Shown here: piece by piece, positions 8,467 to 30,278 of the stretch
How positions within the stretch are numbered: position 1 is the stretch's first letter
Layout: every line of letters begins with the position of its first letter
DNA from: Sthenelais limicola
Taxonomy: Eukaryota > Annelida > Polychaeta > Phyllodocida > Sigalionidae
NCBI GenBank assembly: GCA_942159475.1
Contig: OW804097.1
Span: 55,262,986-55,326,985, forward strand
DNA length: 64,000 nt
Direction: 5' to 3'
Notes under the pieces: model-generated
Told to the model about the DNA's origin: nothing
Databases searched by the model: none
What the model saw: only the letters and a program-made list of their open reading frames with translations
Made by a program: the position numbers and the translations under genes

Positions 8467-9240
8467 CTGGTGCTGAGGTCACCTGCGTGTCAGGTGCTTG
8501 GTCGGTAGATGCTGATGTTCTTTTTGCTCTCTTTCCAGGTTTAGGCTCGCTCTCCTTCAGTGGACTAGGTTCTCTAGGGCTAGCAGGCACTCTCCGCTTG
8601 GCATGGAAATGCCTATGTAAGTGACGCTGAGGATTGTCTGGTGGGAGCACAATCCGCGGAGCTGCTATCAAGGCCCTTGTCTGAGACCTGGTGCGTATAT
8701 GAGGAGGTGGTAGAGGAGTACTTGGAGTCCTAGTTGTTGCTCTTCCAGTTGGGTTAACTGGAGTCTCTTCTATGTTTGCAGGAGTCCTGTACCTCATCTG
8801 AGGTAGTGTGAACGGTGCTGGAGCCGGTGGTGGAATGACCAAGGCCTGGTTCTGGTCAGCATTATAAGGAGGATGACGGGGTGGATCCGGAACCTCTGGT
8901 TGGTCCACGTCACTACCCATATCTTCGTCGGCTGAATAGAATTCTTCCTCGACTTCCGGTACCATTTCCACGTCCGCAGCGCCACCTACAGCTGGATCTT
9001 CCGCCTGGAGATAGACTTGATTCACAGGTGGAAGCAAAGGTTCATGTATTAAAGCATTGGGGTCAACATTTAGATTTTGCCCAGGAGGTTCAGGGGGGAG
9101 TGGCCTCGCTGCCCGAGCCCGTATTCTCGCCTGATTGCGCCTGCCTTGGCCTGCCCTGTTTTGCCTATTTCTAACTGTATCCCAAGCAATATCCCCAGAT
9201 ACCAATTTTATTCTCTCCCGATTTATTAGTTTTCTCTGAC
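8435..9240 (-). CDS. Proline-rich ORF between pol and env (pol tail or accessory protein)
   Basis: This open frame of about 256 residues follows the integrase break and overlaps the env start by about 30 bases. It is rich in Pro, Arg and acidic residues, with a basic start (RNRQNRAGQGRRNQARIRAR), an acidic middle (EVEEEFYSADEDMGSDVD) and a basic Lys/Arg patch near the end (KPGKRAKRTSAS). It has no known domain. It may be the C-terminal tail of pol displaced by the deletion, or a separate accessory ORF. Its length without stops in a degraded neighbourhood favours real coding. Confidence 0.55.
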
Positions 9241-9252
9241 CTTGTGGGTCTC

Positions 9253-12038
9253 TTACAGATCACTACAGCTCCCCTTACACCGGCTAGCTTCAGTATTTTC
9301 TGCAGCTACCCAGAAAGCGTCTGTGAGGGCTTGTAATCGTTCACTTAACACTTGGGGTTCTGTACCATCCGGCCCAGGGAAGATCTTAACAAAGGGGACC
9401 GGGGGTTGACGACCAAAGGTGAGAAAATAGGGAGTGAAATTCGTGACTGAAGAGGTGGAGACTCTATGGGCCCAAAGTGTGGGTCCGAGTTGATTCTCCC
9501 ACTCTGCTGGTCGCGCATTGATGAATTTTTTTAGGATATTCTTAAAGCTTTTGTTAAACCTTTCCGTCTTACCATTAGTTTGGGGGTGCCAGCCAGAAGT
9601 GTGTCTGACTTGCGTCCCAATGGATCTTAAATAACCTTCGACTTGTTGGCTCATGAATTCTAGACCCCTGTCAGTAATGATTACCTCTGGGGGCCCGTAC
9701 CGGGGTACATATTCATTTGCCAGATAGTCAGCTATATTTTTCCCAGTTTTTCTATCAATGGGTTTTACCTCCGCCCATCCACTACAGTGATCAATTACAA
9801 CTATAATATAGCGATTCCCATTGTCTGAAACAGGAAAAGGACCACATAAATCCATTCCCACTATCTGACCTGGGTACCTTGCTATAGGCATAGCGGTGGG
9901 AGCAACCTTATCTTGACCTGCACGATTTACTGCACACTTATCACAATTACTCAACACACGGAGGGTATCTTTCCTCATAGTAGGCCACTTGTAGGCCTCT
10001 AATATCCTATCAAGGGTTTTTCTCATTCCCCGATGGCCCACTTCAGTGTGTGCTCTTCTTATCACTCTGTAACGAGCTGATTGCGGCAACACCAATCTAG
10101 GATAAGCTGGTTTATTGGGTGGGGACATGATTGTAAACAATAATCCGTTGATTAGTGTGTAATCATCCACCTCCTCCAGGCCCAACTGATACTCAGCCAT
10201 CTGTTGCTGCTCTGTTCTGACTTGTTCTCGCTCAAGCTGATCAAACTCCCAGGGGATTTCCTCTGTTTCCTCGAGGGCACCTACTTCAAAATTACTGAAA
10301 GCGTTCCCCTCCCCCTGGTCATAAGTTTCATGAGTCTTTATGCGAGATAACATATCAGCCCGTACATTGTTCTTACCTTGTCTATATTCGATAGGGGCAC
10401 CATATTCTGCTATTAAAACAGCCCAACGCTGAATTTTTGTATTTTTAACCTCACCAAGAAAGCGATTTGAGGGGTTTATGGTCAGTATAGATGGTAAAAT
10501 CACTGCCATATAGATATGGCCTAAGTTTAGTTAGAGCATAAATAATGCAAAAGCCTCCTTTTCTATAGTCTCCCATTTTAGTTGGGGACCTGAGAGTTGT
10601 TTTGAAATATACTGAACTGGTCTTTCCACTCTCATCAGACTGAATGAGGATGGATCCCACTGCGTATTGACAGGCATCTGTATAAAGCTTATAAGCTTTT
10701 CCAGGTTGTGGATGAGCCATGATTTGGTCTGAAGTAAGAACGTCCTTTAATGTTTCGAACGCTTCTTGTTGTTCAGGACCCCATTTAAATCTAGCATGTT
10801 TCTTTGTTAACGCCACCAAAGGTGTTACAATTCTTGCATAGTCAGGAATACACTGACGATAATATCCACAACAGCCTAGAAAAGATCTAATGGCGGACAC
10901 ACTGTCAGGCGGGAGCATTTCTCGAATGGCTTTGACTTTGTCCGGATGTGAATTTATCCCTTGTTTAGACACCTGAAAGCCCAGAAGATCAACCTTGTCT
11001 TGAAAAAATTTACATTTACGGATAAAGTGTCAAAAATGATTTTGAGATGTTTTTCGTGCTCCTCCCGTGTTTTAGAGTAAATCACCAGGTCATCGATGAA
11101 TATACCAAGAAATTTCCCAATATATTCGGCGAATATCCGGTTCATTGCCACACAGCTGGGGCATTAGTTAATCCGAAAGGCATTCTACGCCATTGAAATA
11201 AACCTCTATGGCAGACAAAGGCCGTTTTCTCTATGCTTTCAGGGTGCATTTGGACTTGCCAATACCCAGATTTGAGATCTAGAGTGGAAAAGATCGCTGC
11301 TCCTGTTAGACTATCAAAGATATCTTGTATATTTGGTAGGGGGTGGGCATCTTTCTTGGTCACAGAATTTAATTTTCTAAAATCTGAACAGAACCTGGTT
11401 TCCCCATCTTTCTTAGGTACTAAAGTTATGGGACTAGCGCATGGTGACGAGCTTGGTTCAATCACACCTAACTCAAGCATTTCGTCAATCTCCTTATCTA
11501 CTATCAGCTTTTTGTTTAAGGGAAGGCGATAAGGTCTCTGATTAATAGGGCGGGCATTCCCCGTGTCAATTTCCATGTATACATCTTTTACTATGCCTAA
11601 TTTACCATTTTTGCCAAAAACTTCTGGGTATCTTTCCTCCCAGATTTCTTCCTCTGTTTTGAGGGAAGCAAATTCAGAATCTATTTCTTCTTCTACCGCT
11701 TGACTTTTATATTCTCTACCTCCTAGACGTATGATTCTTTTTCTGTGCCAGATTACTGAATCCAAAATGTCCAGAGCATCGTCCCCTAGTGGGAGATCGT
11801 GTTGGAGGTTTTTAACGACGTATACAGGAAGATGACTACCCCCAGCCTTAATTATCACCCTGCCTTCTGACTGCAAAGCATGACCACTCAGTGACCGTAA
11901 CTGTTCACCTTGTTCCAAAATTAATGGTCGGTGGTTTACCTTATTGAAATGTTTCCACAAATCATACTTAACTAAACTTCTAGTGGCGCCGGTGTCGATA
12001 AGTGCTTGTGCTTTCCTTCCCGCCACAGGAAGGGCCAC
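9253..12038 (-). pseudogene. pol: Pol: aspartic protease, reverse transcriptase, RNase H, integrase (frameshifted)
   Basis: Domains in order on the minus strand: protease with the active site LIDTGATRS near 12000; RT fingers and palm at 11560-11150 (LKSGYWQVQMHPESIEKTAF, MPFGLTNAP); the RT catalytic box FIDDLVIYS near 11090; RNase H at 10970-10450 (LYTDACQYAVG, YTDHKPLKSL); integrase at 10300-9300. The integrase has an HHCC finger (HTEVGH...CDKC) and DDE residues in MDLCGPF, ITDRGLEF and NGKTERFNKSFK. The frame breaks near 11148 (with a few codons lost between the RT motifs), 11025, 10625, 10545, 10465 and 9265. Several breaks sit beside short homopolymers. The C-terminal GPY/F region of integrase is not recognisable, so a deletion near 9260 is likely. 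All catalytic motifs remain legible. Confidence 0.93.
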
Positions 12039-12061
12039 ACGAAACCGCTTATCCGGCGAAT

Positions 12062-13288
12062 TTATTCCCCCGAAGGGAGAACAAAGGGGTTTGTGGGAAC
12101 TCTGGGAGTTAGGGCTTGTATAGCCGCTATAACGGGTTGCATTTTGTTATCCATTACTTCTTCCATGTCTGGTCGTACAGCCGCTCTCATTTGTGCGAAT
12201 CGAGTAGGGCATTCTCTAGCAAAATGTCCCTCCAATCCACATTCATAGCAAGTATTCTTACCTCTAAACCTTTTTCCCCCCTTCTGTGCCCCTCCCTTCC
12301 TTTTCTGACCCTGTTGTGACTCTACCTGATTAGAATTGGCAACCGGGGCAGGGTTTGGAGCGCTATAAGGCGGAAATGTAGGCAAATAGGATGGTTGTAC
12401 AAAGGGAAACTGAGTCTGGTTCTGAACTGGTGGTGCATGAACTGTTACTGATGAAGGTTGAGATCTTTCCCTCCCCAAGAGTTCTACCATATTTCTTAAT
12501 GCTTTTAATTCGTCCATCAAAGCTTTTGTTCCAACATCGGTCTCCCCAGTAGAGGTCGGTGGAGTCAGAGTTTGGGTTGGTGTCCGAGGTTTTGGGAGTA
12601 AGGCGCCTATTTCCATAGGTTCCTCTCTCCTTGCACCTCTGGCTGGAGCATCGGCTAACGTATGGGTATACGCTGCCGTTGTCGCCAGGTCAATTGCTTC
12701 CCCCAAGGTCTCTGGTCTGGTTGAGAATACCTCACACTGTACCTGTCTATCGGTGAGCCCACGTATAAAATCTCGAGCTAATTGTGACTGAATTACAGGC
12801 AAGGCCAAAACGCCTGGTTCATAAGCCCTTAGAGCTGTTTCCTGGTACTTACGGCCATAAATTCGTATGTCTTCGTATGGGAGTTGATGGATCCCCTTCA
12901 ACTTCTCTCTAAGTTGAGTGGTCTCCTCTTCTCCCATAAACAAGCGAATTATTTCCTGTTTTACACCCTCCCATGTACGTTCCGCTCCTTGTGCTTCTAC
13001 ATAAGATTTGATGGAACGTGCTAATAATCCCTGAGCTAACAATATAACTGCCTCTATGGCTATGTTATCATGCGCCCCTACTGTGATTCTAACTCTGTCC
13101 AACCCCTCTAACCACTCTCTGAGTGATTCTTTGTTGGTCCCATCGTTAGGACCCAGCAAGGTTGCATGTCTCTCCATATGCCTTCTAACTACTTCTATTG
13201 ACGCATAGTGTGCTTTACGATCAGCATCATTGAGTGCATTTACCTCTTCGGCGGTGATTTCCCAGTTAATAGGTGTTGTCAACGCCAT
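12062..13288 (-). CDS. gag: Retrotransposon Gag polyprotein
   Basis: This intact 408-residue ORF has the Retrotrans_gag helical region at about residues 50-190 (LREWLEGLDRV, FIRGLTDRQVQ). A Pro/Gln-rich linker follows, then a basic patch (GQKRKGGAQKGGKRFRGK) and one CCHC zinc knuckle (CYECGLEGHFARECP) at about residues 345-360. It forms the particle and binds the element RNA. The first ATG follows the leader directly. Its stop lies within sequence that stays open in the pol frame, so pol is in -1 relative to gag and probably expressed by ribosomal frameshifting. Confidence 0.93.
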   Translation of the reverse strand: MALTTPINWEITAEEVNALNDADRKAHYASIEVVRRHMERHATLLGPNDGTNKESLREWLEGLDRVRITVGAHDNIAIEAVILLAQGLLARSIKSYVEAQGAERTWEGVKQEIIRLFMGEEETTQLREKLKGIHQLPYEDIRIYGRKYQETALRAYEPGVLALPVIQSQLARDFIRGLTDRQVQCEVFSTRPETLGEAIDLATTAAYTHTLADAPARGARREEPMEIGALLPKPRTPTQTLTPPTSTGETDVGTKALMDELKALRNMVELLGRERSQPSSVTVHAPPVQNQTQFPFVQPSYLPTFPPYSAPNPAPVANSNQVESQQGQKRKGGAQKGGKRFRGKNTCYECGLEGHFARECPTRFAQMRAAVRPDMEEVMDNKMQPVIAAIQALTPRVPTNPFVLPSGE

Positions 13289-13475
13289 TTCGGAGGTAAA
13301 TGAATTAGCTGATTATATGTAAAGATGAATTACTATTACCTGCTTGATTTGGAATATTCTATTTCTATAGAGAGAATTTGGAATATTAATTTTTGCCTAG
13401 ATCCAACGTAACAATTTTTGTGCAGGTATTTCCAAAAACAAAAATTTTGATCTCTTTAGTCCCTATTCTTACCCA

Positions 13476-14525: not shown

Positions 14526-15189
14526 ATTGCATCGCGTTTCTTTTTGTTCTCGATCCCTCAAAGGAGATATCATATTAAAACTCTATTAAAATTCTGCTAT
14601 GGACACTAGAGTGTGAGGCAAGGTACAACACAATATTTTATTTAGTCTGCCCGATTCTTGTCCGATTATGTGCTTTTATCAATAAGAAATTAATAACAAG
14701 TGTTGCTTTGCTCTGCAACAAAGTGGTGGTTTAAAATATTCTTTTTCGAAGATTTTCATAAGATAAATTGCAAGACGTCTTACTGTAACGTTAATGTCGA
14801 ATATCAAAAGTCTAAACGATTTTTTTCTAATCCAACTTATATAATCGGCTCAGGGATGTAGGCCTAAACCATAGCTGTGATGAATTTCAATACTTATAGG
14901 CCTATTCTTTGAGACGGCCTTGCTCATCTGGTCACGTGACAGTGCATCCACACTTCTAGGAACGAACTGATTTTGTGCAATTTTGAACAATTAATCATAT
15001 ATAATATTAAAATCCATATAATAAAATATATTCATAATGAACATGAGCAACATTTCCGCAACATTTATTGCCTAAAATCGACAGTAATGCTGAGATTTCC
15101 CCCATTGTTTACTTTCACCCCACTGCCGGGCAGTGGGCCGGTACTTGGGGGAATCCAGCCCTTGACGACCATAGCAACCTTAATCTCCC
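14526..15189. other. Spacer without recognised gene
   Basis: AT-rich DNA right of the Ty3/Gypsy insertion. A short palindrome CCCACTGCCGGGCAGTGGG sits near 15120-15140. Nothing else is recognised. Confidence 0.5.
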
Positions 15190-15864
15190 ATAATATATGC
15201 GACACTTTCAGATCGTGGATAAAATGTTTATTAGAGAATTCTAAAGCTGCCTTTTCGAACAATGGTCATATATCCAACTGGTTCGACATAAGAAGGGGAG
15301 TTAAACAGGGAGACCCAGTCTCATCTTATTTATTCACGATGATAGTAGAGAAGCTAGCAGAAAGCCTGAGAAATGATAGTGAGATAGAAGGAATAAAAAT
15401 AGGAGGATATGAGAATAAAATAATACAGTTCGCAGACGACAGCACTCTCATGGTAAAGAATAAAATATCCCTTGTAAAATGCCTCAGAAAAATAGACGAT
15501 TTCTATTTAGCAATTGGTCTAAAACTTAATGCCAAAAAATCAAAAGGCTTCAGAGTTGGAAATGTTGTATTGTCTAATAGAAAGGTATTAGAACTAAACT
15601 GGGAGAAAGAAATAAAAATTCTAGGGGTCACCCTTATGTCGCCAAGAAGTGAAACAAAACTATCCCTAATAAATACGGTTGATGTTGTGCAAAAAAATCA
15701 AAAATGTAATAAATGCATGGAGGTACAGATCCTTGACAATTAAGGGTCGAATATTGGTCTTGAATGTTTTTGTACTACCCTTGGTTCAGCATACGTTATC
15801 ATGCGTTTATATAGACCCAAAGAAACAAAAGGAGATAGAAAATATTATCACCACTTTTTGTTAG
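15190..15864 (+). pseudogene. Non-LTR retrotransposon RT fragment (L1/Tx1-like)
   Basis: The plus strand encodes RT motifs in order: FDIRRGVKQGDPVSSYLF, then IIQFADDSTLMV (the catalytic FADD box), then LKLNAKKSK. A frameshift near 15680 moves the reading to a frame continuing with WRYRSLTIKGRILVLNVFVL, typical of the region downstream of RT in L1/Tx1-like elements. Endonuclease and both ends are missing. The similarity stops abruptly near 15862. Confidence 0.8.
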
Positions 15865-15956: not shown

Positions 15957-18900
15957 GGATGTTTGTTTGTTTGTTTCTTTATTGACAGCATTTCATTACT
16001 TTACAAATGATCATTCTCAGCATGTCTAAAATATTACAGAAAAATTAGTGGAATACATTCAATATGATTATTAATTAATTTTAGACTAAATACAACATTT
16101 TAACATTTAAGTATATTGATCATAGAGTTCGACACTTTGTCGCTTTATACACATAATCTCCCCCCGTCGTTTCAATAGCGAACTACATGTGCCCATATGA
16201 TATGGTAGCATTGAGTGTCGCCACCTACCGGCTCACGTCAACAATCATTGGAGCCTGTGATTGAGATAGGTTAATTCCTCTTACTGTTGATATCACCTTT
16301 ATAAAAATAAAAGATGATAAAATGCACAAGTGTTTTTTTGTATTTCTTCATATAGGTAAAAATCGCATAAAAACATAGGTTCGGGTTCTGGGTCCACAAA
16401 ATAAGCTAGCATCCCTAATATATTTCTTTGTTCTCTCTAAACTCTGCCCAAAGTCTTTCTTTTATTTTAATCTTGAAGTTCGGCAGATCAAGATTATTTC
16501 TAATCACAGGAGGTAGGTCGTTCCATATATTATCAGATTTAGCCAGACAAGATCTGGAAGTATTGTCTTTTTTCCATCTATGTACATTAACTTTTCTCCC
16601 ATCGTCGCCTCGTATATTCATATTTCTGTTCCTAATAATGAAGGAGCCTGTTCGATGTATAAGAGATAACATTCGACCTTTCCTGCGGAGGTGCAATGGT
16701 AATATTCCACATCTTGTATGGATATTATAATTCGAAACATGCCCCCTCACGTTCACAATAGTTCTAAGCCCTTTATTTTGAGTCTTTTGTAATTTCTGGT
16801 GTATATTTTGTGGGCCCAGATCCGTGCAGACAATGCTATTCTCAAGTATTGGCAATACAAATGTTTTATAGAGCGAAAGGGCAATATCAGGACCAACATA
16901 AGGCAGAACTTTTCTAATCTTATTAATCTCAAAATAGGCTCTCTTGGTGGTAAAATTCACCATCTGTTCCATTCTTAGATCAGAGTCGACAAGTAATCCT
17001 AGATATTTAAAAATCTTAGTTTCCTCAATACGATCATTCAATAATCTATAATTTGGTATATTGTTATTCTGCCTTCTGTTACCGTTTATACGTTGTATCC
17101 TGGTCTTGCCTATATTAAGCTTGAGGCCATTGTGCAGGCACCATTTCTCAAACTTTAATATGTCACCCTGTAGCACATTCACATCATTTTCGTTTTTAAT
17201 TTCCCTCCATATGACACAGTCATCCGCGTATAATTGTACTTTTGAGGCAAAGTTCAGTTCTGTTAGTGCAGTAATTTCTTAATAATTTTAGACCGTTATT
17301 CCTGAACCCCAGAGCATTCAGTTTAGACAGTAACCTATCCAAATTGATCGTGTTAAACGCCTTGGATAGATCGAAATATACAAGGTCAGAGTTTCTTCCA
17401 TTATCTTTGGTTTTCAGAAGGTCCAAAATGAGGTGACTGAGAGCGGTTTCCGTACCTCTACCTGAAGTAAATCCATGTTGCTTAGTAATAATTATGTTGT
17501 TATCTATAAAGTATTCATCTAGTTTTTCTTTCATTATTTTTTCAAATATCTTGCCAGCCAGGGAAGTAATCGTAATAGGTCTAAGGTTATCTACCTCAAA
17601 ATTATTTAATTTCTTGGGAATGACCGTGCATATTCCCCTTTTCCACACATTTGGATATTCCCCACTAATTCTGATTTTATTCAGGAGGTTAGTGAAGTTT
17701 CCAATGTCAGATGTAAGGCATAATCTTAAGAATATGGTAGGCAGATCTCTATGTCCGCTACTTTTGCTGTTGTCCAGAACCATAATCTTTTTTAGCACAT
17801 CGTCAATTAATATTTCTTCATCCCATGTGAATCTGCTGTTCAAAGTAACCAGATCAGGCATATTTTGTTGTATAGTGACTCTGGAAGTAATATTTGCAAA
17901 ATAGATGTTTGCCATATCGGCAGCAGCCTTACCAGTATAGGATTGATCATTTTTTATTATAGCCTCAATATTTGTTCTTGTTTTAGTGGAGGTCTTGGTT
18001 GGATAAATTTCTGACAAGTGATCCCAGAATTTCCTTCCATTACTGGAATGTATTCTAAGTATCTCAAGAACTGCTTCTCTCTTTGTAGTAATTAGTTTAC
18101 TTTTCAACCTTTTTCTCTGTGCTTTAGCTGCCTTCCAGTCATTCTCTCTGCCTGATCGTTTGGCTATTGTAAACAACCTATTCTTATCTCGTATCATGTT
18201 TTTAACATCTCTAGATTCGTTCCCTTTATACCTTGGTTTTATTAAAATTTCCTTCATGGGATAAAGCTTATCTAGAACTCCTAGGTATTTTTTACTCAGA
18301 GTTTCCCAGAATATATTGACTTCTAGATCTTCCAATGGTATCACTGGGAGGTTTAGATTACAAGCGTTCATTTCCCTTTGGACAGCTTCAGTATTCAACT
18401 TTCTGGCTAAATTTCTAGTATTAACCTTTTTGGTTTCATTGAGGAGGTCCGATCTGCCTCTACTCTTTTTTATTATAGCGTATATCGGTAGATGGTCAGA
18501 TAATATGTCCAGGGTACCAGTTTTGTTGACAAACCTACAATCACTCATGATCAGATCAATCGTGCTACTAGTGGTCGATGTAACTCTAGTTGGCTGGCTA
18601 ATTAATTGTTTCATGTTCGAGTTTTGTAGATGATTATACAATTGTCTCTTAGGGACACTGTTCTTCGAGACATCAATATTGATGTCACCCAGAAATAACC
18701 TTTCATGTCCTAAGTTTAAAGATCTCTGAAGGATTTGATTAAACTCTTCCATGTAATCAACTGTGCTCGAGTTTGGTGGTCTATAGATGTTACTTACTAG
18801 GATATGTTTCCTATTTCCAGCTTTTATTACAACGCTCAAAATTTCACAATGATCATTTATGTAAGATAAGTCGTCACTCAATGTCATGTTAATATACTCT

Positions 18901-19148
18901 TTACAGTAGATGAGTAGACCACCACCTCGATTTTTTTCCCTGTCTAGGCGCACAAATTTATAGCCATTTATTTTGAGTTGACTATCGTGTACACAGCTTG
19001 ACAACCAGGTTTCTCCTATACACACTACATCAAATGTACCATTTACAATCTCCAAATGGATGTGTTCTTTTTTGTAGAAATAACTAGCCGCATTCAAGTA
19101 ACAAATTTTAAGACCATTCAGTCTATCCACCTCAAACAAACTATCCAT
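15957..19148 (-). mobile_element. LINE A, CR1/L2/Jockey-group non-LTR element (5'-truncated)
   Basis: ORF2 begins at 19148 and the 3' end at 15957-15980 reads, on the minus strand, CAATAAAGAAACAAACAAAC: a polyadenylation-like signal and a short CAAA-type tail as in CR1/L2-group elements. No ORF1 precedes ORF2, so the copy is 5'-truncated, or ORF1 was lost. The 3' UTR covers about 15980-16414. Confidence 0.85.
16415..19148 (-). pseudogene. LINE A ORF2: APE endonuclease and reverse transcriptase with internal deletion
   Basis: The first 642 codons (19148-17220) hold an AP-endonuclease domain with CIGETWLSS, GGGLLIYCKE, LVSNIYRPP, LGDINID, STIDLIMSD and SDHLPIYA. RT fingers follow (ENLRPITITSLAGKIFEKIM-like block, KQHGFTSGRGTETALSHL, VYFDLSKAFNTI). 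Then the frame breaks near 17280. The RT block GVPQGSVLGP expected next is absent, and the sequence resumes directly with VQLYADDCVIW near 17225, continuing in another frame to 16415 with the thumb and C-terminal region. So roughly 40-50 codons are deleted at a frame break. Confidence 0.88.
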
Positions 19149-20060
19149 TTTCTAGTATCAAGGAAACATAGGCATGAATGAACCCACAAACCATACAATT
19201 AAAAACAGGTAGGTTGCTATTCGCGTGATAGCTCGCAAGTCCGACTCGTCGACCGTGTTCCGAAGAGGTTATTACAACCAGTCCAGCGGGGTTTGAGACA
19301 GAATACATGAAATTGGCGGTTAATTAACACAAGAAACAAGGCGTACCTTTAATCCTCTGTAATCTAGTATCCATAATTTTCGCAATTTCCGAGAGAATGG
19401 TATTTGTAAGTTTGTCGTTGGTATTTTTCATGAGATTTCACAGTCATGTCGGCCATACTGGTTCCGGTCACGCATTGTCGTGATATTGTTACCAGTCACA
19501 TTTTGCAAATCAGTGGAGATATATCATACCAGTTTACACCCAGTTTTATCATGTATCAGTCAGAACCACTATATATCAAAAGAATATTTTTATACAGCAA
19601 GTACTAAATCAACATTTCGGAAGTGAGACATGTGACCCAAGTACCCGTTTCCGGCATTCAAGATGGCGGACCATAGTCAAAACAAACCTGATCCACGCTA
19701 TGATCATTCGATTATTACGGTGAATTATGCCAATAAACAGGTATTTCGTGTCATTTGATCTAGTAACGGTACATATTGATGTTATTCTATCTCATCAGAA
19801 CCCTATAATCGATAGTCAAGTGAGTGTAATATCATACCAGTCTGTTTTAGCCTATTTTTGACTTCGTTTCGTTAAGTAGGTCATGCGTTTCCTGCATGTC
19901 GAACAGCTGTGAATGTCCTTCATTATTCCTTGATTTATTCAGCCTGATGGCGATATTCTTGAGCTTCAGAGTGTTTTCCCTGGGTGTAGATGATATATGG
20001 GTCAAGGACTTGCTTCTCACTTGATTTAAAGTTGTTGACAGGTATTTCTTCATCTTGTTT
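19149..20060. other. Stretch without recognised gene between LINE copies
   Basis: I see no convincing coding sequence. A short minus-strand ORF at 20053-19847 has no recognised motif. Confidence 0.4.
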
Positions 20061-20750
20061 TATATATATATATAGAATTTTTATTCAGCAAACATGTACA
20101 TTTGTTGTAATATATGCAGGAAAAGGACAAGGTTCGGTCTCCTATGGAGTTCTTCCGAGTAGCCCTTTTAAAATAAATAGATTGCAAAGTATACATGACA
20201 TTGTAGTTTGACAGTGTAACAGTGGTACAATTTCTATTCAATGATTTAAACAATTATAATTTGGACGGTAGTGGTTTTACATTAATACATTTTGTTCGTT
20301 ATTAGCTTGTGGCTGCAGTCCCGTTTTTACTTTCTACATCTATGTCTTAGATATTAGTTAAGACGCGTTATTTCTGCAGTTAGTTTTTTGTTTCCTCTCT
20401 GCCTGGACTGGCAGTGTGGGTTGCTGTAAACAATGTGTCTCTTCCTAAACTGGTCGAGAGTTAGGTAATAGCATATTTTTAACTGAAAATTAGGTATTGT
20501 GTCTCTTCCTAAACTGGTCGAGAGTGATTAGTACATTGGACTAGAAGAAAATTGGTCGAGATTAATTAAATAATAGTACATTGAACTGGAATTAATCTTA
20601 ATACTAACATTATAGCTGAATTTTCAACTTATATCCCCTTTCCCTTCCCACAATCCACCATTGTATTGGTCTTGATACACAGATCTTACATGTCTGTCTT
20701 CATCCCCCCTTCCCCCTTTCCCCATGCGGTTTCCAACAGATGAGATGTGG
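20061..20750 (-). repeat. Probable 3' end of a further LINE with (TA)n tail, plus a 66-bp direct repeat
   Basis: On the minus strand the sequence ends with GCTGAATAAAAATTC followed by a (TA)n tract at 20061-20075, the style of the other LINE 3' ends here. At 20433-20458 and 20499-20524 the segment TGTCTCTTCCTAAACTGGTC is repeated. No coding part is recognised. Confidence 0.45.
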
Positions 20751-20752
20751 CT

Positions 20753-20755
<3 letters not shown>

Positions 20756-20796
<41 letters not shown>

Positions 20797-20812
20797 TATA
20801 CATATATATATA
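20756..20812. repeat. (TA)n microsatellite, tail of LINE B
   Basis: Uninterrupted TA with two CA interruptions, directly after the AATAAA of the minus-strand LINE B. Confidence 0.9.
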
Positions 20813-20949
20813 TTTTATTGGTTTACATGAATTTACATTAGGTTTCAATACCTCACGGTTTACTACATTTACAATCTGTAATGCTTTACTACTTATATTT
20901 CATGTCAGGCACGCAGTGTCTGTTCATAAAAGTAATAAATTTACCTAAA

Positions 20950-21645
20950 TTACTGTACAATATTTTCCTGTCCCTGAGGAATGTTTTGTTCTCTCAGGTG
21001 GACATCATATTCCTGAGGGTAAGAGGATTTTAAATATACCTTAAATTCTTTTCTGGTTTTTATAGATCTGGGTTTGGACGGAAGATCGTTCCACAAGGAG
21101 GCCATTCTAAATATATAAGACTTTTTGAAACTTTCGTTTTTCGGGTGGGGTACTTTTAGTTTTATCCCATTGCTCAGTCCCCTCAGTACAACATTTCTGT
21201 TGTCCAGGTTATCAGTATTGAGAGACCTTCTAAATGCCAGCTCAAGAGTGTGGCTTTGCCTTCTCGTGTCTAAGGTGGGCAAATTAACCGCTCTATGGAT
21301 TTCTCTTGAGCTGGTGAATTTTGGAAGTTTTAAAACAATTTTCAGTGCCGCGTTTTGTAGCGACTGTACCCTGTCCAGATATCGTTGTGGGGCTGTTTGG
21401 TAAAAGATGTCCCCATAATCCAGGTGTGGCATTATAGTGACCTTATAGATGAGTAGTAAGGTGTTTCTGTCACATATACCATAGAGTTTGGACAGTGACT
21501 TAATTTTAGCCCGTACTACATTTATCTTTTTATCTAGAAAATTCTTAAAGTTTAATTGCCTGTCGATCTCTACCCCCAGGAATTTATAATAATCAACGGA
21601 GTCAAGTTTATGATGGCCTATACTATAACAAGAGTTCATGCTCCT
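20950..21645 (-). pseudogene. LINE B ORF2, C-terminal fragment only
   Basis: About 229 codons begin just after the expected YADD region: YYKFLGVEIDRQLNFKNFL, MPHLDYGDIFYQTAP, LQNAALKIVLKLP and ending with RMASLWNDLPSKPRSIKTRK. This is the connection and C-terminal region of CR1/L2-group RT proteins. The catalytic part is missing. It is related to, but clearly a different family from, LINE A. Confidence 0.82.
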
Positions 21646-23351
21646 TGTTTTTCGGGATCGCTGGACAGTCGTTCGATGTCGTCTTCCTGCTCGTTGGATT
21701 TCCCCTCCTCGTTTATAGATTGCAAGGCTGTGAATCTAGATCCACATGGGGTAGGTGTAATGCTGTCATCTTTGGATTTCTCTCTGCAATTTACCATTGT
21801 TTTCCTGGGAGATGGGCTGGTATAGCCGTCCTTGTCGACTACATCGTGAGCTGGCACAGGTTTGGCATTTTTGCATTTCAGTTCATGGAATTTATTAGTG
21901 GTCATAGCACGCTGTATTTCACCTCGTACATCCATGAGAATTCATCCAAACAAGTTATCACCCTTCCAGCATCCTTCGGCTAACTGCCAGTGGCCTAAAT
22001 ACACGCCAGCCCCCCATTTTTTGCTTGGAGTGGCCTCTATCAATCGTACATCCCCAGTATTAGCCAAACGAACTGCCATATTCTCATCCTTGTAGAATTT
22101 ACACCGTATGATATCCTTCATGATATCAACTTCTCTCTCCCTCCATTCCTTAGATGGGTGGATTCTCTCTCCCAGAGCTTTAATGTCCCTTGGTTCTGTG
22201 TGTCCAAGGATTTCATTGGCGAGGCTGGGTTTGCACATGCGAGCTTTCTTATGTACATATGCTTGTTCGGAGCAGTTGAAAACCTGACCTTCATATTCCA
22301 CATGGCATCCGTAAAAGTTGCTCATATACGCGTGCTCACCTTGAAAGGCTATGCCGTCTTTCACCTCGACAACTTTAATGCATCCTGGTTGCAGTTCCTC
22401 GTCTAGACATTTTAGCTGCCTATGACCATAAATCACACCGTCTATAAGGACCCTGTCCCCCTTAGGCCTTGTTCTTAGTGCGTCTGCTCCTTTAGAAATG
22501 GCATTTGCCGCTAATAGTTTCATTAGGCTTCGCCTTTTCTTCATTTCTATCGTGCAAAAGTCATGGCAAAACATGTTATCAGCGTTAGGCCATTCAGATC
22601 TAGGGAACATTGTATGGTCTTTGAAGCTCTTCGTTCCTTCGGTAATGAATCGATCCCTCATCGATTTATGAAGTAATCTCACTACCAGGGGGGGTGCGGA
22701 TCTTCTGTCTACAGTCTGTGACTGCCAATAGGTGGTATCGATCACACCAACCCAAATCTTTGGTAGAAATATGGCCAGAATTTTAGTTGCTATTTCTACA
22801 GGATTCTCACTGTCGTATAACCCCCTATGGATGTTCTCAATTACTACGTGAGTGTCCTTCTGTTGTTGTTTTATAATATCAAGCTCGTCTTGTACTTTCT
22901 CTACCGCCTTCTGGTTATATACCGTATCGCTCTGAATAAATTCCAATTTTGTGTCAACGACGAATTTTCTCTCTCTCGATTCAGTAGTGTTGCTTGCCAT
23001 AGCTTCTTCGAGAGTCTTGATTCGATCAGACATCTGTTGTCTTGATTTGACTAATGCTTGCAATATGAGAGTCTTCTTCGAATCCTCAGCGATTAGATTC
23101 TGCAGTTCAACCTCCAGATCAAACTCAGGGATTTCACCATCGGACGAATCTGTGTCTGTCATATCTTCAGCATCTAATTCATCGAAGTCGTATTCCATTG
23201 ATACTGGTTTTTTGGCCGTCGAACCAAGGGGAGAAGGATTCTTACGTTTTTCACCACTAGTTTCTGCACCAGCTTCAGGAGATTTAATATCCATTTTGGT
23301 ATTTGGGTCGAGAACATTAATTTTCCTAGCCCAGCTTTTCAATACTTCCAT
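21636..23351 (-). pseudogene. LINE B ORF1: coiled coil, RRM/CTD-like nucleic-acid binding region and NADAR domain (one in-frame TGA)
   Basis: ORF1 spans 571 codons with a single in-frame TGA at 21942-21944. The reading resumes in the same frame with ILMDVRGEIQ, so one point mutation explains it. Residues 1-90 are Ser/Asp/Glu-rich with a basic patch. About 95-175 form a likely coiled coil (MSDRIKTLEEAMA, VEKVQDELDIIKQQQKD). About 175-315 resemble the RRM and C-terminal domain of L1-type ORF1 proteins (APPLVVRLLHKSMRDRFI, EMKKRRSLMKLLAANAISKG, VLIDGVIYGHRQL). About 330-485 form a NADAR (YbiA-like) domain: YMSNFYGCHVEYEGQ, CSEQAYVHKKARM, DIKALGERI, WREREVDIMKDIIRCKF, NTGDVRLIEATPSKKWGAG and GDNLFG. 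The tail (486-571) is polar. NADAR enzymes cleave ADP-ribose from guanine; a role in retrotransposition is my inference. Confidence 0.82.
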
Positions 23352-23722
23352 TCAGGCAATCAGCACTATTGTAGAGAGTTCAGTTCATATAGATACGATT
23401 CAGCCGTGAATGATCACCGGTGCTCGGTATGGCTTGTTTACCTTATGGACAGTGTTGTCAGGTGCGGACCGTAGGCTATAAATACCTCCAGCGGGTCTAG
23501 GATCCTCCTAATGTCGCTCACCAATCGTAAAAGTGTCCGATTTTCATAAAATAAATCATTTTGATCAAGTCCAGATCGGTCACAGGTGTTCCCAACACAA
23601 CAAGGTATCCTAGTATTCACAAATCAGATTATTTGATACGCCATGTACTTGTGCGAACTTGGGAGTTCAGAGTGACATGTTATGCACGTCTGCCAGGTTC
23701 AAATTTCCCGCAAATGTACTAA
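23352..23722 (-). other. Possible 5' UTR of LINE B and flank
   Basis: No gene is recognised. The 5' end of the LINE is not marked by any visible target duplication. Confidence 0.35.
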
Positions 23723-23840
23723 GTGTATTTCACACCAGAGGGCAACAAACAGGGGAGTGGTGGTATACCTACTACCATACTCGCTTGTTGTGTGTATTTC
23801 ACACCAGAGGGCAGCAGAGACGTGGTGATATACCTACTAC
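23723..23840 (+). repeat. Two direct copies of a ~50-bp unit
   Basis: GTGTATTTCACACCAGAGGG opens both copies (23723 and 23792) and TATACCTACTAC closes both (to 23775 and 23840). The spacing is 69 bp. Function unknown. Confidence 0.8.
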
Positions 23841-25540
23841 TAGCTTCACTATAGAATCGGTAAAAGCACCTCCCATTGCGTTTAGGGAATAGGGAACTAT
23901 ATCCGCCTCAACAATGAAAAACGTTCTCAGTTTTGCATTTCAGGATTAGAAATCAAAGGAATAAATCCAAGGTTTCGGTTTAAAAATTAGCAGAATTATA
24001 GAATTATAGTGCTTTCCAATTGCTGACCAATTGCTAAGCTAAGGGCCTCACACTATGCCTATTCAATGACATAATTAGAAATTATTTTATTGATAGGGTC
24101 TTCATGTTTTCCCAGTTTATTTATACTTTTGATACATGATTAAATCGTAGTGACACAAAGCTGTCCGAAGCAAACAGAAATATCTTGAAGCCTTTTTCCC
24201 ATTTTAATTTTGTTGTTGTCAATTTTAAATAATAAATAATATACCTAATAAATTTAGTAATTTACTAACTAGTAAGGGGATTGCTATAAGTATCCGCGAA
24301 AAGGATCTTTTATTCTCTTTAAAATGGCATGGAATAGTACGTTTAGATAATCTAGCATAGACAGTCCCCAATCCGCACATCCTATATACCATTTCCACTG
24401 TGTAGGAACTTATGAAAGTTAAGATAAAATGAAGCTGGACTTTAGAGTCCTAATCATTATCATGTACTGTACATTACAATGGCTGGTAGTAGGGATAGGT
24501 CACCTGACAGTATAACAGTATATGTGGCGGTGGTATCATGTGTGATATCCCTCCATGAATAGACAACAGACAGATGTACAATTAACATGTTCATAAACTT
24601 TTTATTTTTTTCTCCCATACAGGCATTTAACATTTTTTCCTCCCGTAGAGGCATTTTTTTTTTTAACATGTCTTCTAAGCCAACATTAATAAGTTGTAGG
24701 AGAAACATGCAATATCACCACTGATTTTGAACGGATACAAACATAACATAACAATAATTTATCATAGCAAATCGGTTTGTCTCTCCTGTGGCTATTAATA
24801 TCCTAGTAGACCACTCCCAAGACCTGCTCATGAGACGCTAGTGACTCCATTTCGGGCAGCACCTATTAAGTGGGTCAGATCTTCAGAAAATGTACAATTC
24901 GCCTTTACCAATCCTCTCCAGTAACCCACATTTAAGACAAAAATATGGAAAGGCATTTGTATCCATATAGATTCCCTCCTCAATTCGGAGATGTAGAGTG
25001 CAAGTTTGCAAAAAACCTTCGAAATGGTCATAGGAATTGCATACGAAATAGGAAATTTTTTTCCTAATCTGCATCGAAATAGGTCCCAACAGGTCCTACT
25101 CCTCATTTTGAAAACATTTTAGAACTTTCCCAATTCTCACCAATTTCACATCCAGTCCATTCTTAACTTGCATTTTGCTTCTGCAAACTTGCATTTTTCT
25201 TTTCCTACTTCTCTTCGATCTAGGCCCCACTTCGTCAGACTGACTGCCTACTTTGCAAGACATCATGCCAGTCTGCATTTCATCACTTCCCAGTTTGACA
25301 CACTTAGTGCTAACTTGCAATGCATCCAAATGTTTACACTCCTTTTTCCAGTCACAACAAACACTCATTACAATATTTAGCGCCGCCCATAGACTGAGCT
25401 GAGGCATCCCTGGGTTGTGCATGCACTTCCCAGGACGCCAGGCAGTTATATAACTTATAAGAAGACTTCAACAATGAAAGGCAATAAAACAATTTGTCTG
25501 GGAGTTGGGTGTTTAGGGAATGAATAGATGTGTAAGGTTT
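23841..25540. other. Stretch without recognised gene
   Basis: AT-rich sequence with scattered short ORFs lacking domain motifs. A lone relative of the 52-bp tandem unit (GAATTGCATACGAAATAGG) is at about 25034-25052. Confidence 0.4.
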
Positions 25541-25692
25541 ATACTTCACTCTAGCCATTGACATTGCATACGAAATGGGAAAAAAGTTTATCATACTTCA
25601 CTCTAGCCATTGAAATTGCATACGAAATGGGGAAAAGTTTATCATACTTCACTCTAGCCATTGACATTGCATACGAAATGGGGAAATGTTTA
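25541..25692 (+). repeat. Three tandem copies of a 51-52-bp unit
   Basis: ATACTTCACTCTAGCCATTG begins each copy at 25541, 25593 and 25644, and each contains TTGCATACGAAATGGG. Copies are nearly identical. Confidence 0.9.
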
Positions 25693-26679
25693 TTAGAGAG
25701 GGAGAGCAAGAGAGAGAGGGTGTTCCGTGGATCAACATCAACTGAAACTATTTTTCTGGTGTTCGCCCAAACAACCTTTTTAATAATTATAGAATTGAGA
25801 AAACAATATCTAGGCATACACACGGTATACCTAGGGTTGTAGACTAGTAGTTCAGAAACTTGTGAAATTAAAAAAAGTATTGTCAGTTTATCTATAGGAC
25901 AATGTATCACCGTCTATCGCTTGCTACCACGTCACGGGGGTCGAAATCCCCAAAGCATCGTCATTCTAGTCAAATTCTATTGTCAGTTGATTCTTAATCT
26001 TGGGGCAAGATACTCCCGCTACTCTGGACGTCCTCTTCAGGTATCTTGCGGATTTTCAGTTTTCAGGGTTCTCTCACGATTGGTTTTGTACGGAAAATAC
26101 ACACCCAAATGTATATTGTCGGCGATATTTCGGTATTTGATATGCAGGACGGGAGGATATTTCCCTAGATGAGTATATTTGAATCAAATTACGGCCGCTA
26201 CGCTGTCTTTTGTCTCCAAATTGACTATTGGACGAACTGAGTAGATAGCACTGTTTGGTTAGATAGGCTGCCGATCTCTACACAGTAGGCCCTACTGCTT
26301 AACCTGTAGCGATATAGCACTTGGTTTGGTCAGCCTGCGCCTGACTATGTTTGGTCAGCTCCAGCCTGACTAGAGGGGCCAGACTTGTATTAATGCTAAA
26401 TAGAAATGCCCCCTTATGGGCGGGGCTTAGGAGGCGTGGTCTATTTGTTTGTTTTGACTGGAATGAGAGGGTCCAGACTTGTATGAATGCTAAATAGAAA
26501 TGTTGTGGCCCAACGTGCAGGTTGCAGGTTGCAAGTTTGCATGCAGTGGTCCTAGTCTGCAGCAATGTAGTGCCAGTGTGTGCAGACTAGGGTGCTACTT
26601 CGAAAACTCAAATTGCAGATTGGGATGTGAAGAATGCAAGTTAGCAATAGCAGGACCTAATATGCTACTGTATCTATAT
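25693..26679. other. Stretch without recognised gene; short direct repeats
   Basis: A ~30-bp segment with CCAGACTTGTAT and GCTAAATAGAAATG occurs at about 26381 and 26473. Nothing coding is recognised. Confidence 0.4.
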
Positions 26680-27765
26680 CTAAAAAGTGAGCGTAAACGG
26701 CAAAACATCCAAATGGACACCAGTCACTAGCGGAGTTCCCCAAGGCTCGGTACTTGGACCCGTCTTATTCTGCCTATTTGTGAATGACTGTCCCAAGGTC
26801 ACAGACTGCAGCGTAGAGATGTATGCTGACGACACCAAGCTTCACTCTATCATTGACAACACATCCAACATACAACAGGACCTCAACAACATCCAGGACT
26901 GGGCATACAAGATGCAGATGCGCTTCCATCCTGACAAATGTAAAGTGCTACACCTAGGTTACAACAACCCAAATCACAGCTACACCATGTTGAATGGGAA
27001 GGAAGAACAGCAAGAATTGGAGACTACAACGGAAGAAAAAGATCTGGGGGTCACAGTAGATGATAGACTAACCTTTGCAACCCATGTACAGAACATTGTC
27101 CAGAAAGCTAACCGGGTACTAGGTGCCCTGCGGAGGACGTTCAACTTCATGGACCCAACCATGTTCCTACAACTCTACAAAAGTCTGGTGCGTCCCCACC
27201 TCGAATATGCATCCTGTGTATGGTCGCCAGCCTATAAATACCTCAGCGACATGATTGAGAATGTACGGTACAGCGCAGGGCCACCAAACTAGTACCACAA
27301 CTGCGTGAACTCCCCTACGAGGAACGACTCCGCCGACTCAACCTTCCAACGCTTCTTTACCGTAGAAGACGGGCTGATCTTATCCAGGCATTTAAGATAA
27401 TTAACAACATCGATCAGCTAAAACAAGACACGGACTGCAAGGTCTGCGAGTCTAGGCAGATGTTCGAGTTGTCCTATGCCAGGAATACTAGGGGCCACAA
27501 CAAAAAATTCAAGTCCAACATGCCGTTGGGCACCGCTCACGCTTCTTTGCGACAAGAGTGACACCTGCCTGGAACCAGCTAAGCCAGTTAGCCGTCAACT
27601 CCTCAACAGTACTACAGTTCAAAATAAATCTCAGCCGTTGCCCAACCGAAAAATCACTCCTATACATCCACTAAATTCTATACCGCCTAAACTAATTAAC
27701 CCGCGAAACCCACCATGCACACACACAAATTAACGTTTAGCGTCTCATTATCCTTAAGGGATATA
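26680..27765 (+). pseudogene. CR1-like LINE, 3' fragment (RT palm to 3' end)
   Basis: The plus strand encodes VTSGVPQGSVLGPVLFCLFV, then SVEMYADDTKL (catalytic YADD), MRFHPDKCKVLHLG, EKDLGVTVDDRLTF and SLVRPHLEYASCVWSPAY. A frameshift near 27265 moves to a frame continuing with RATKLVPQLRELPYEERLRR and, after another shift near 27530, TPAWNQLSQLAVNSSTVLQF. This is the classic CR1-type end of ORF2. Similarity starts abruptly at about 26680 (5' truncation). Confidence 0.88.
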
Positions 27766-28364
27766 TATTGACGGATACAGGTGAGATTACAGGTGAGGTG
27801 AGATACAAATGCCTTTCCATACAAAAATGCTCTAGGTTTCAAAAGTGACTAGCTACCAAGCCAAACACCAAGTCCCCAGTGCTGCCCTCTGTAGGTCCCG
27901 TGACGTCATCAGTTTCGGTGCACTTCGATTAGTCTGTAGGCCACACTTCGATAGGTGCTGGCCTCGGAGCGTACGTTTTTCACCTAAGGAGGGCCTTCAA
28001 TAGGTAAATGACATACCTATCTATCTGTTGCAAAATCCAGTTCTTATTAATGATTAAAAACGAGTTAATCATGTAATTTAAGTGTTTTGTGAAGTTGTCA
28101 ACCCTAGATTTCTGAGCAAATGATGTTTTTCCATGTGTAATTCATGTCGGAACTGACCACTCTCTGAGGCCGCCTGATCACACAGCAGCTGTGCGGGACC
28201 TGTCAGGGTAAGGTTCCGATGACAAAAGCCTGTCTCACTCGGCCTCTACTGAGCGCGATGTGCGTCCAGGGTCAATACTGCTTATCCTCTAAATGAGATG
28301 GGTGGTACGCTGATAGGGTTAGGGATAGGTGAGCTTGGATAGGTTGCCGCGCTAAGAGTCCCTA
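27766..28364. other. Spacer without recognised gene
   Basis: No coding or repeat structure recognised. Confidence 0.4.
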
Positions 28365-28787
28365 GGATAATTTAGACCCCCGTTAGGCGTTACGGCGACA
28401 GGGGGCTTCCAAATAAATCAAATTTACATATTAATATCATCAAGAAATTAATTGGAAAGTTGAAAATAATGATTTTTTAACCATACAATCATATTATTTC
28501 CGATTAATGTGTTTTCCCCAAAAAATACTGGCTGCATTTTTTTAAACAGTGGTTTTGATAGGCAAACCCTCGTTTTTATGTGTGGACACATAAATGAGCA
28601 TTTTCTTGGCCTCACAATAAAAAAAAAAAAAAAAAAAATATGTCGTAGGACACTTCCCCCTAGACGATTTTTCTCCCCTGGATCCGAAAATACCAACGAA
28701 AATAATCTCAGATTAATATTTTAGCCTCTGGAGGAGCTGTTGTAACACCCAAATTAAATGGCGCACTTTTGGTGGAATTGCTCATAT
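28365..28787 (+). repeat. Truncated copy of the GAGCAATTCCACC TIR element
   Basis: About 420 bp match, in inverted orientation, the segment 32859-33340. Shared blocks are GACAGGGGGCTTCCAAAT, AAGAAATTAATTGGA, ACTGGCTGCATTTTTT and the terminus GGTGGAATTGCTCATATA (ends 28787). The opposite end of the element is missing. An A run at 28618-28638 lies inside. Confidence 0.8.
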
Positions 28788-30278
28788 ATCAGTGGTCGAA
28801 AAAGGACAAAAATAGCATGTCCTACCAGGCAAGCTTCTGACAAAATCAGGTTGCCTATTTTGAGCATTAAAAGTCCTTAAATGTCAGTCTCCCTAGACTG
28901 GGAACCCTGTTGTTGTTACTTAAATAATAACAGCTTTTCAACAGTGTTTTGAAAATGTTGTATGTGCTTGCAATGTAGGCCTAGTCCTAACCGTTACTCT
29001 TCATTATTTCCTTAATGTAAAAATTGTGGAATTTCACTAGGCCACCAGAGCTTCTGGCGACCTTTTTGTTCCTTATTCATCACAGGGAAGATTGGTTGTG
29101 GCACAAGGAAAAAACACAGGGAATTTGAAAACAAAATTTGTGTGGTCACCCTGAATTCGGTATATTTTGCGTTTATTGAAAATTTATCTAGACTCGCTGA
29201 AGTTGTGGATTGGATGCAAATGGATGCAAAAAATCCAGGGAAATAAAACGTCAGCGCTCATAGGCCTCGCTGGTGGCCTTCGCCTAAAAGTGATCATAAA
29301 CACTCATGATTTCTTTCATTTCAATTAGAAATATCTATAATCTATAGGCCTAATGTCCATGCAGAGCCACATGTAAAACTGCTAAGAGCGTTTGATATTA
29401 CAATTTAGATAGGAGATTTTTTTTCATATGTGGGTAACCGAAATGTGGTCTCTCCGTTTGTGATGGACGACCTCAGACTCTGATCGTGACCATTGATTGA
29501 TTGTGGAAATGGTGACCTAACCGTGTTAGGGGGTGGAACATATGCAGTGCCTTTCCATCTGATGCTATACTGACCCAGACCGGGTCATTTCCTAGCTAGA
29601 AATGAACAGATCTGGTTTAGCTAGGGGTACTGCCTGGCACATGGGATGAAAGTGCAGATCGTGTTGCTGAGCTGCAGGAATAAGTTAAGCTTTAGGGTTT
29701 TGTATAATTCATTTTCTGAATTCTGGTGATCATACAAGTTGCCCAAGCCTCTTATATTTATGAGGTCTATATGTAAAGGGAGTTAACAGGGTTTGAACAT
29801 TCGCCTCCTATCCTTCTGACATGTTTTGCCTCACGATATTCATGACTCTGCTGAACTTTTTACTTTAAAGGCTTTGTACATGTGAACGGTCTATGTTAAA
29901 TCGCTCTTCAAACTATTTTGAAATACACACATCTTTGTAATACACTTTCATGTCATTCATTTATTAATACTGTCAGTATGAAGCCAATGCTTGTTTGTTG
30001 ACTTTGTGTATATATCGAGGCAAACGTTATTACACTGAACAAATTACCTCAAAATACTCAATTCTAATCCGCCTCCTTTGTAAAATCAACCAATATAATC
30101 CATACCAAAATTCGAGTATTCTATTAGCTGTGCCTTTATTGATTATTTTATTCATTTTTCCAGATCATTGATTGAGAAACAATTGGAGAAAACATCCCAA
30201 AACGTTAAAAGTACAGATATTCCTGACCAGAACCAACGCTATTATCACCTGGTATTGATCAATCACTTCCTTTAAATC
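28788..30278. other. Upstream region of the methyltransferase gene, nothing recognised
   Basis: The promoter and 5' UTR of the gene starting at 30279 should lie in the right part. I see no distinctive core promoter element. Confidence 0.35.

What the first reader, a model, noticed from the sequence alone, without database searches (positions are those of the whole stretch)
21636..23351. NADAR (YbiA-like) domain fused to the ORF1 protein of a LINE
The C-terminal third of this ORF1 shows SNFYGCHVEYEGQ, SEQAYVHKKA, WREREVDIMKDIIRCKF, NTGDVRLIEA, KWGAG and GDNLFG in the order and spacing of NADAR enzymes. The N-terminal part has the coiled coil and RRM/CTD-like layout of ORF1 proteins. NADAR proteins are known to hydrolyse ADP-ribose from guanine in DNA and counter DarT-type toxins. 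A retrotransposon carrying one could strip ADP-ribose from its cDNA or the target, or counter a host PARP-type defence. I know of no description of such an element.
Basis: partly seen in the sequence, partly recalled or inferred. Interest (0 to 1): 0.87.

Follow-up and report, generated by a model that had tools for sequence, protein, structure and literature searches.

The report
NADAR enzyme domain in LINE ORF1
A broken copy of what looks like a jumping gene (a LINE) carries, at the end of its first protein, an enzyme-like domain from a family that can remove ADP-ribose from guanine; one earlier paper briefly reports the same kind of fusion in oyster elements.

Summary

An in-frame TGA (21944-21942) interrupts the last NADAR helix; reading through it completes the domain (94.5 against 78.4 bits). 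The frame then runs to a TGA overlapping the ATG of a 229-codon ORF (21639-20950), which resembles the C-terminal part of LINE reverse-transcriptase proteins. Endonuclease and RT core are missing, so this is a dead, internally deleted LINE copy, or two abutting fragments. The coiled coil is only predicted; RRM/CTD is not confirmed. NADAR in LINE ORF1 is already in print, for Tx1 LINEs of Crassostrea gigas (PMC12477816).

The catalytic Glu, Lys and Glu are kept, but four otherwise conserved ADP-ribose-contact residues differ, so activity is uncertain. By recalled motifs the RT remnant looks Jockey/CR1/L2-like, not Tx1-like; if it is one element, NADAR occurs in a second LINE lineage. No intact eukaryotic relatives could be searched.

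The parts
21942..23351 (-). ORF1 up to its first in-frame stop, 469 codons (ATG at 23351)
   Evidence: NADAR by Pfam
22812..23117 (-). predicted coiled-coil region (residues 79-180)
   Evidence: helices 79-119 and 127-180 in the model with alignment; also in the single-sequence model, (low confidence)
21915..22337 (-). NADAR domain, residues 339-479 when read through the stop
21942..21944 (-). in-frame TGA inside the last NADAR helix
   Evidence: domain match grows from 78.4 to 94.5 bits when read through
21636..21941 (-). same-frame continuation of ORF1 after the stop (101 codons, then TGA)
   Evidence: it begins with the end of the NADAR domain
21636..21639 (-). ATGA: the stop that ends the ORF1 frame overlaps the ATG of the downstream ORF
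20950..21639 (-). 229-codon ORF resembling the C-terminal part of LINE reverse-transcriptase proteins; endonuclease and RT core absent
   Evidence: blastp to the LINE ORF at 16415-17278 (E 6e-18) and to the RT fragment at 26684-27292 (E 4e-8); E 1.4e-17 and 1.6e-8 when the query begins at the ATG. No Pfam family matches it
20753..20813 (.). TA microsatellite past the end of the RT remnant, possible 3' end of the element
23723..23840 (-). two direct-repeat units 65-69 bases apart upstream of ORF1, possibly 5'UTR monomers
   Evidence: (families D2, D3)

Best explanation
This is a decayed copy of a two-ORF LINE whose ORF1 protein is an N-terminal coiled-coil region followed by a C-terminal NADAR domain. 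In intact copies, ORF1p would coat the element RNA as an oligomer. The NADAR domain, carried into the ribonucleoprotein, would hydrolyse ADP-ribose from guanine in the element's RNA or cDNA, or from other targets there, and so protect the element from a host ADP-ribosylation defence. Shown here: the NADAR sequence and predicted fold, the catalytic Glu/Lys/Glu, the stop codon, and an RT-like remnant next to it on the same strand. Inferred: RNA binding, one element rather than two, any catalytic activity, and the defence role. My odds: about 0.85 that this is a LINE ORF1 protein with NADAR in either arrangement, about 0.65 that it forms one LINE with the RT remnant, and about 0.3 for the anti-ADP-ribosylation mechanism.
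For: NADAR profile, sequence and fold matches; 41 predicted viral structures match at E up to 0.001 in BFVD, many of them named NADAR. Residues corresponding to E43, K50 and E125 of the Phytophthora enzyme (roles read in PMC11543638 section 12; positions mapped by hand on the alignment) are E362, K369 and E439 here; among 48 aligned homologues these are E in 48, K in 48 and E in 46. The residues corresponding to K75, W89 and W133 are kept as well (46, 48 and 48 of 48). An RT-like remnant follows on the same strand with an ATGA stop-start overlap. The same kind of fusion is reported for Tx1 LINEs of oyster. Guanine de-ADP-ribosylation by eukaryotic NADARs is reported in PMC11543638 (passages). 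Clam CARP-1 and the pierisins modify guanine, though that paper says that NADARs as erasers of their marks are not experimentally confirmed. ZAP/PARP13 restricts L1 (PMC4441479, abstract and headings seen), but a heading there says that its zinc-finger domain is sufficient, so this need not involve ADP-ribose.
Against: ORF1 is broken by a stop inside the domain. Residues corresponding to the ADPr-contact residues R79, R93 and D130 are E395, E407 and K444 here, against R in 44, K or R in 39, and D in 47 of 48 homologues; Y84 corresponds to H398, where 46 of 48 have F or Y, and D86 to S400 at a variable position. In the pairwise alignment the residue at D130 is a Ser, so the Asp is lost either way. 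[quoted passage not shown] by its spacing to the Trp, that Asp is the one missing here (my inference). No ORF2 core; no target-site duplication found beyond 8-base matches; no second copy in the window. RRM/CTD not confirmed. The RT remnant has no Pfam match and no reverse transcriptase among its PDB matches up to E 1; it is recognised only through other LINE frames of this window. The blastp starts 12 residues upstream of the ATG; that part adds about 2 bits, so whether the join lies exactly at the ATG is open.
Confidence: 0.6

Rival explanations
1. Two elements abut: a 3'-truncated Tx1-type LINE supplies the NADAR ORF1, and a 5'-truncated Jockey/CR1/L2-type LINE supplies the RT remnant.
For: Published NADAR LINEs are Tx1; the RT remnant carries motifs (HLDY, LWNDLP ... 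FK) that I recall as typical of the CR1/L2/Jockey group, not of L1/Tx1; LINE copies are often 5'-truncated (recalled).
Against: ATGA stop-start overlap at the join, with the downstream frame open from that ATG; same strand; by eye, no remainder of another ORF2 in the six-frame translation of 19140-20760 beyond the TA repeat, and no tblastn hit of the LINE proteins there.
Confidence: 0.28
2. A host or viral NADAR gene retrocopied beside a LINE fragment; the N-terminal part is not a LINE ORF1 protein.
For: RRM/CTD not confirmed; NADARs occur in invertebrates and in RNA viruses of invertebrates (passages).
Against: A long predicted coiled coil and NADAR in one intronless frame that ends on an ATGA junction with an RT-like ORF; published ORF1-NADAR LINEs.
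Confidence: 0.1
3. The LINE NADAR is no longer an ADP-ribosyl-guanine hydrolase and serves as a binder of ADP-ribose or RNA, or in RNA processing.
For: Charge changes at two phosphate-contact positions, loss of the Asp and of the aromatic residue at the adenine; RNA processing is the role suggested for retrotransposon NADARs in PMC12477816; SNA-3 with its NADAR domains acts in trans-splicing.
Against: The catalytic Glu/Lys/Glu are all retained; the changes may be decay of a dead copy.
Confidence: 0.3

Closest known systems
Tx1 LINEs of Crassostrea gigas with NADAR in ORF1 (PMC12477816, passages read)
   Same: LINE ORF1 protein carrying a YbiA-family NADAR domain
   Different: no sequence of those elements could be compared here; the RT remnant next to this ORF1 looks Jockey/CR1/L2-like by recalled motifs, not Tx1-like; this copy is broken
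[quoted passage not shown]
   Same: retrotransposon carrying NADAR
   Different: LTR element, NADAR in Pol and not in an ORF1 protein
NADAR of Phytophthora nicotianae (8bau) and YbiA of E. coli (2b3w)
   Different: R79, Y84, D86, R93 and D130 of 8bau not kept; here fused to a long coiled-coil protein
LINE ORF1 types I-V (PMC4120745, passages read)
   Same: variable ORF1 proteins with extra domains such as PHD or esterase
   Different: the paper's main text as held has no occurrence of NADAR, YbiA or ADP-ribose

Membership tests
NADAR family (PF08719) | profile match over the domain | tested here: met
   E 9.7e-22; 1e-26 read through the stop, profile 9-162 of 163
NADAR family (PF08719) | NADAR fold | tested here: met
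NADAR family (PF08719) | catalytic Glu, Lys and Glu (E43, K50, E125 of 8bau) | tested here: met
   E362, K369, E439
NADAR family (PF08719) | ADP-ribose contacts R79, Y84, R93 and D130 of 8bau | tested here: not met
   E395, H398, E407 and K444 (Ser at D130); so a member by sequence and fold, not shown to be an active hydrolase
NADAR family (PF08719) | hydrolysis of ADP-ribosyl-guanine | not testable with these tools
   needs an assay
type II LINE ORF1 (coiled coil, RRM, CTD) | coiled coil | tested here: inconclusive
   long helices 79-180 predicted at middling confidence; oligomerisation not tested
type II LINE ORF1 (coiled coil, RRM, CTD) | RRM and CTD | tested here: inconclusive
   no profile match and no relevant PDB sequence match; model too poor there
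APE-type LINE | ORF2 with endonuclease and reverse transcriptase downstream | tested here: not met
   only an RT-like C-terminal remnant follows in this copy
Tx1 clade | L1/Tx1-type RT phylogeny | tested here: inconclusive
   RT core absent, so no tree was made; C-terminal motifs, aligned, are Jockey/CR1/L2-like from memory

The most novel reading that the evidence does not exclude
NADAR has been captured by, or exchanged into, a second LINE lineage (Jockey/CR1/L2-type) besides Tx1, as a new ORF1 type, because stripping ADP-ribose from the ribonucleoprotein or cDNA gives LINEs an advantage against a host nucleic-acid ADP-ribosylation defence.
Probability: 0.3. Interest if true: 0.75.

Novelty: new member of a known kind. 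Interest (0 to 1): 0.42.

Why it matters
Retrotransposons that carry an ADP-ribosyl-guanine hydrolase would point to an ADP-ribosylation defence against mobile elements in animals; PMC11125620 (passages) calls the roles of animal NADARs unclear. In the passages I read, PMC12477816 notes the fusion for oyster Tx1 elements in a few sentences and says that its role in retrotransposition is unclear.

Tried and rejected
Host gene: rejected as the main reading because the frame is intronless, ends on an ATGA overlap with an RT-like ORF, and the fusion is published in LINEs. Single-sequence AlphaFold of ORF1: uninformative (mean pLDDT 35.3). RRM/CTD by Pfam and PDB sequence: nothing relevant; no L1 ORF1p-like chain is among the rows shown, which hardly test that region. 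Weak hits to PspB, Met_gamma_lyase, DUF1664, RIB43A-like and PARP (E 0.18-0.3) and cohesin (E 0.028-0.042) were taken as chance. ORF1 and its NADAR part as queries in viral contigs: 10 and 2 stretches matched a pattern, none a relative. Target-site duplication search between 20700-20765 and 21600-26500: three 8-base matches, TA-rich words left out. Rfam on 19000-29000 and tRNA scan of the window: nothing. Paper searches for a NADAR-LINE fusion: NADAR with retrotransposon (104 papers, 20 listed), 'NADAR domain' (15), NADAR with non-LTR (0), YbiA with ORF1 and LINE (1), Tx1 with LINE, oyster and ORF1 (2), NADAR with transposable element (7), DUF1768 (6). Of the 15 'NADAR domain' papers I read passages of five; the others I saw as listings only. 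Among what I read only PMC12477816 describes a LINE fusion. PMC10294476 (bivalve transposons) has no occurrence of NADAR in its main text. The organism was not identified.

Full report
What is there. The finding lies on the minus strand. Pfam NADAR (PF08719) matches residues 339-469 at E 9.7e-22, 78.4 bits against a cut-off of 35.1. NCBIfam's riboflavin-intermediate N-glycosidase model matches residues 340-469 at E 6.9e-18, below its curated cut-off (65.4 against 73.7 bits), and an anti-phage NADAR model weakly (20.9 against 240 bits). By sequence the solved NADAR 8bau is found at E 1.3e-11 and YbiA 2b3w at 0.027. tblastn with the NADAR part finds 577 of 50,697 phage records at E up to 0.01, all under 60% identity.

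The stop codon. The frame goes on after the TGA as ILMDVRGEIQ..., which aligns with the C-terminal end of seven phage NADARs. Read through the stop, the Pfam match grows to 94.5 bits and profile positions 9-162 of 163. The ORF1 frame therefore once continued, and this copy cannot make a whole NADAR domain unless the stop is read through. The continuation ends at a TGA (21638-21636) that overlaps the ATG (21639) of the next ORF.

What follows. The next ORF, 21639-20950, matches the LINE frame at 16415-17278 (23% identity over 226 columns, E 6e-18) and the RT fragment at 26684-27292 (22% over 90 columns, E 4e-8). Starting at the ATG, the values are 1.4e-17 and 1.6e-8. The first of these LINEs has Exo_endo_phos_2 and RVT_1 matches in its frame at 17220-19148. 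No Pfam family and no reverse transcriptase among the PDB matches up to E 1 is found with the remnant itself, so its identity rests on these two comparisons. It has no endonuclease or RT core, and by eye no further ORF2 part is seen in the six-frame translation of 19140-20760. Either the LINE lost most of ORF2, or two fragments abut. The ATGA overlap in frame favours one element, moderately. The motifs of the remnant (HLDY, LWNDLP, FK) are, from memory, those of the Jockey/CR1/L2 group and not of L1/Tx1; no call tests this.

Active site. From PMC11543638 (section 12 read; other passages) and a mapping by hand on the alignment, E43, K50 and E125 of the Phytophthora enzyme correspond to E362, K369 and E439 here. 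Among 48 of the 57 homologues found (nine partial ones left out) these are E in 48, K in 48 and E in 46. K75, W89 and W133 are kept too. Against activity: R79, R93 and D130 correspond to E395, E407 and K444 (Ser), where R stands in 44, K or R in 39 and D in 47 of 48 rows. Y84 corresponds to H398, where 46 of 48 have F or Y, and D86 to S400, a variable position. PMC9303266 (passages) mutated E251, D343 and W346 of SNA-3 as homologues of residues critical in YbiA; by spacing to the Trp, this Asp is the one missing here (inference). Whether this is decay of a dead copy or a trait of the lineage cannot be told without relatives.

Literature. PMC12477816 (passages) reports NADAR in ORF1 proteins of several Tx1 LINE families of the Pacific oyster, and in one Gypsy lineage of Ectocarpus, and suggests a role in processing RNA intermediates. 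It is the only such description that my searches found; the library lacks most subscription papers, and most listed papers I did not open. PMC4120745 (passages) describes five ORF1 types spread over the CR1 and L2 lineages; the word NADAR does not occur in its held text.

How it may work. Most likely intact ORF1p brings a NADAR hydrolase into the ribonucleoprotein, where it removes ADP-ribose from guanine of RNA or cDNA, or from other targets. Only the predicted fold and the catalytic residues are shown. Guanine-modifying ADP-ribosyltransferases are known from a clam and from butterflies (CARP-1, pierisins), though PMC11543638 says that NADARs as erasers of these marks are not experimentally confirmed. 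ZAP/PARP13 restricts L1 (PMC4441479, abstract and headings), with its zinc-finger domain sufficient according to a heading.

Limits. No eukaryotic relatives could be searched: the protein database was off, the genome search did not complete (eight calls), and the DNA collections searched hold viruses, phages and prokaryotes. The organism is unknown; that it is an animal is my impression from the repeats and zinc-finger frames, not a result.

Noticed in passing
window 16415-19151, minus strand: Another LINE with endonuclease and RT matches, its coding split between two overlapping frames at 17220-17278.
   Followed up: partly
window 26684-27292, plus strand: A further LINE RT fragment (YADDTKL motif), similar to the RT remnant beside the NADAR ORF.
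   Followed up: partly
window 14940-15743, plus strand: Open frame with an RT-like stretch (FADDSTL, by eye), similar to the RT fragment at 26684-27292 (E 1.8e-5).
   Followed up: no
window 6495-13312, minus strand: Open frames that read like an LTR retrotransposon: a CCHC gag-like frame, RT and integrase-like frames, and two further frames with possible membrane stretches, perhaps env-like (by eye).
   Followed up: no
window 23735-23747 and 23804-23816: The two repeat units upstream of ORF1 each hold CCAGAGGGCARCA, close to the CTCF core motif as I recall it. With one mismatch allowed the window has 3 matches against 0.14 expected, but the pattern was taken from these very repeats.
   Followed up: partly
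window 51945-56900, minus strand: Long C2H2 zinc-finger frame with a tandem PIPTDLGKTT-like repeat (by eye).
   Followed up: no
window 25546-25690, plus strand: Three near-identical units of about 50 bases (CTTCACTCTAGCCATTGA...) seen by eye.
   Followed up: no
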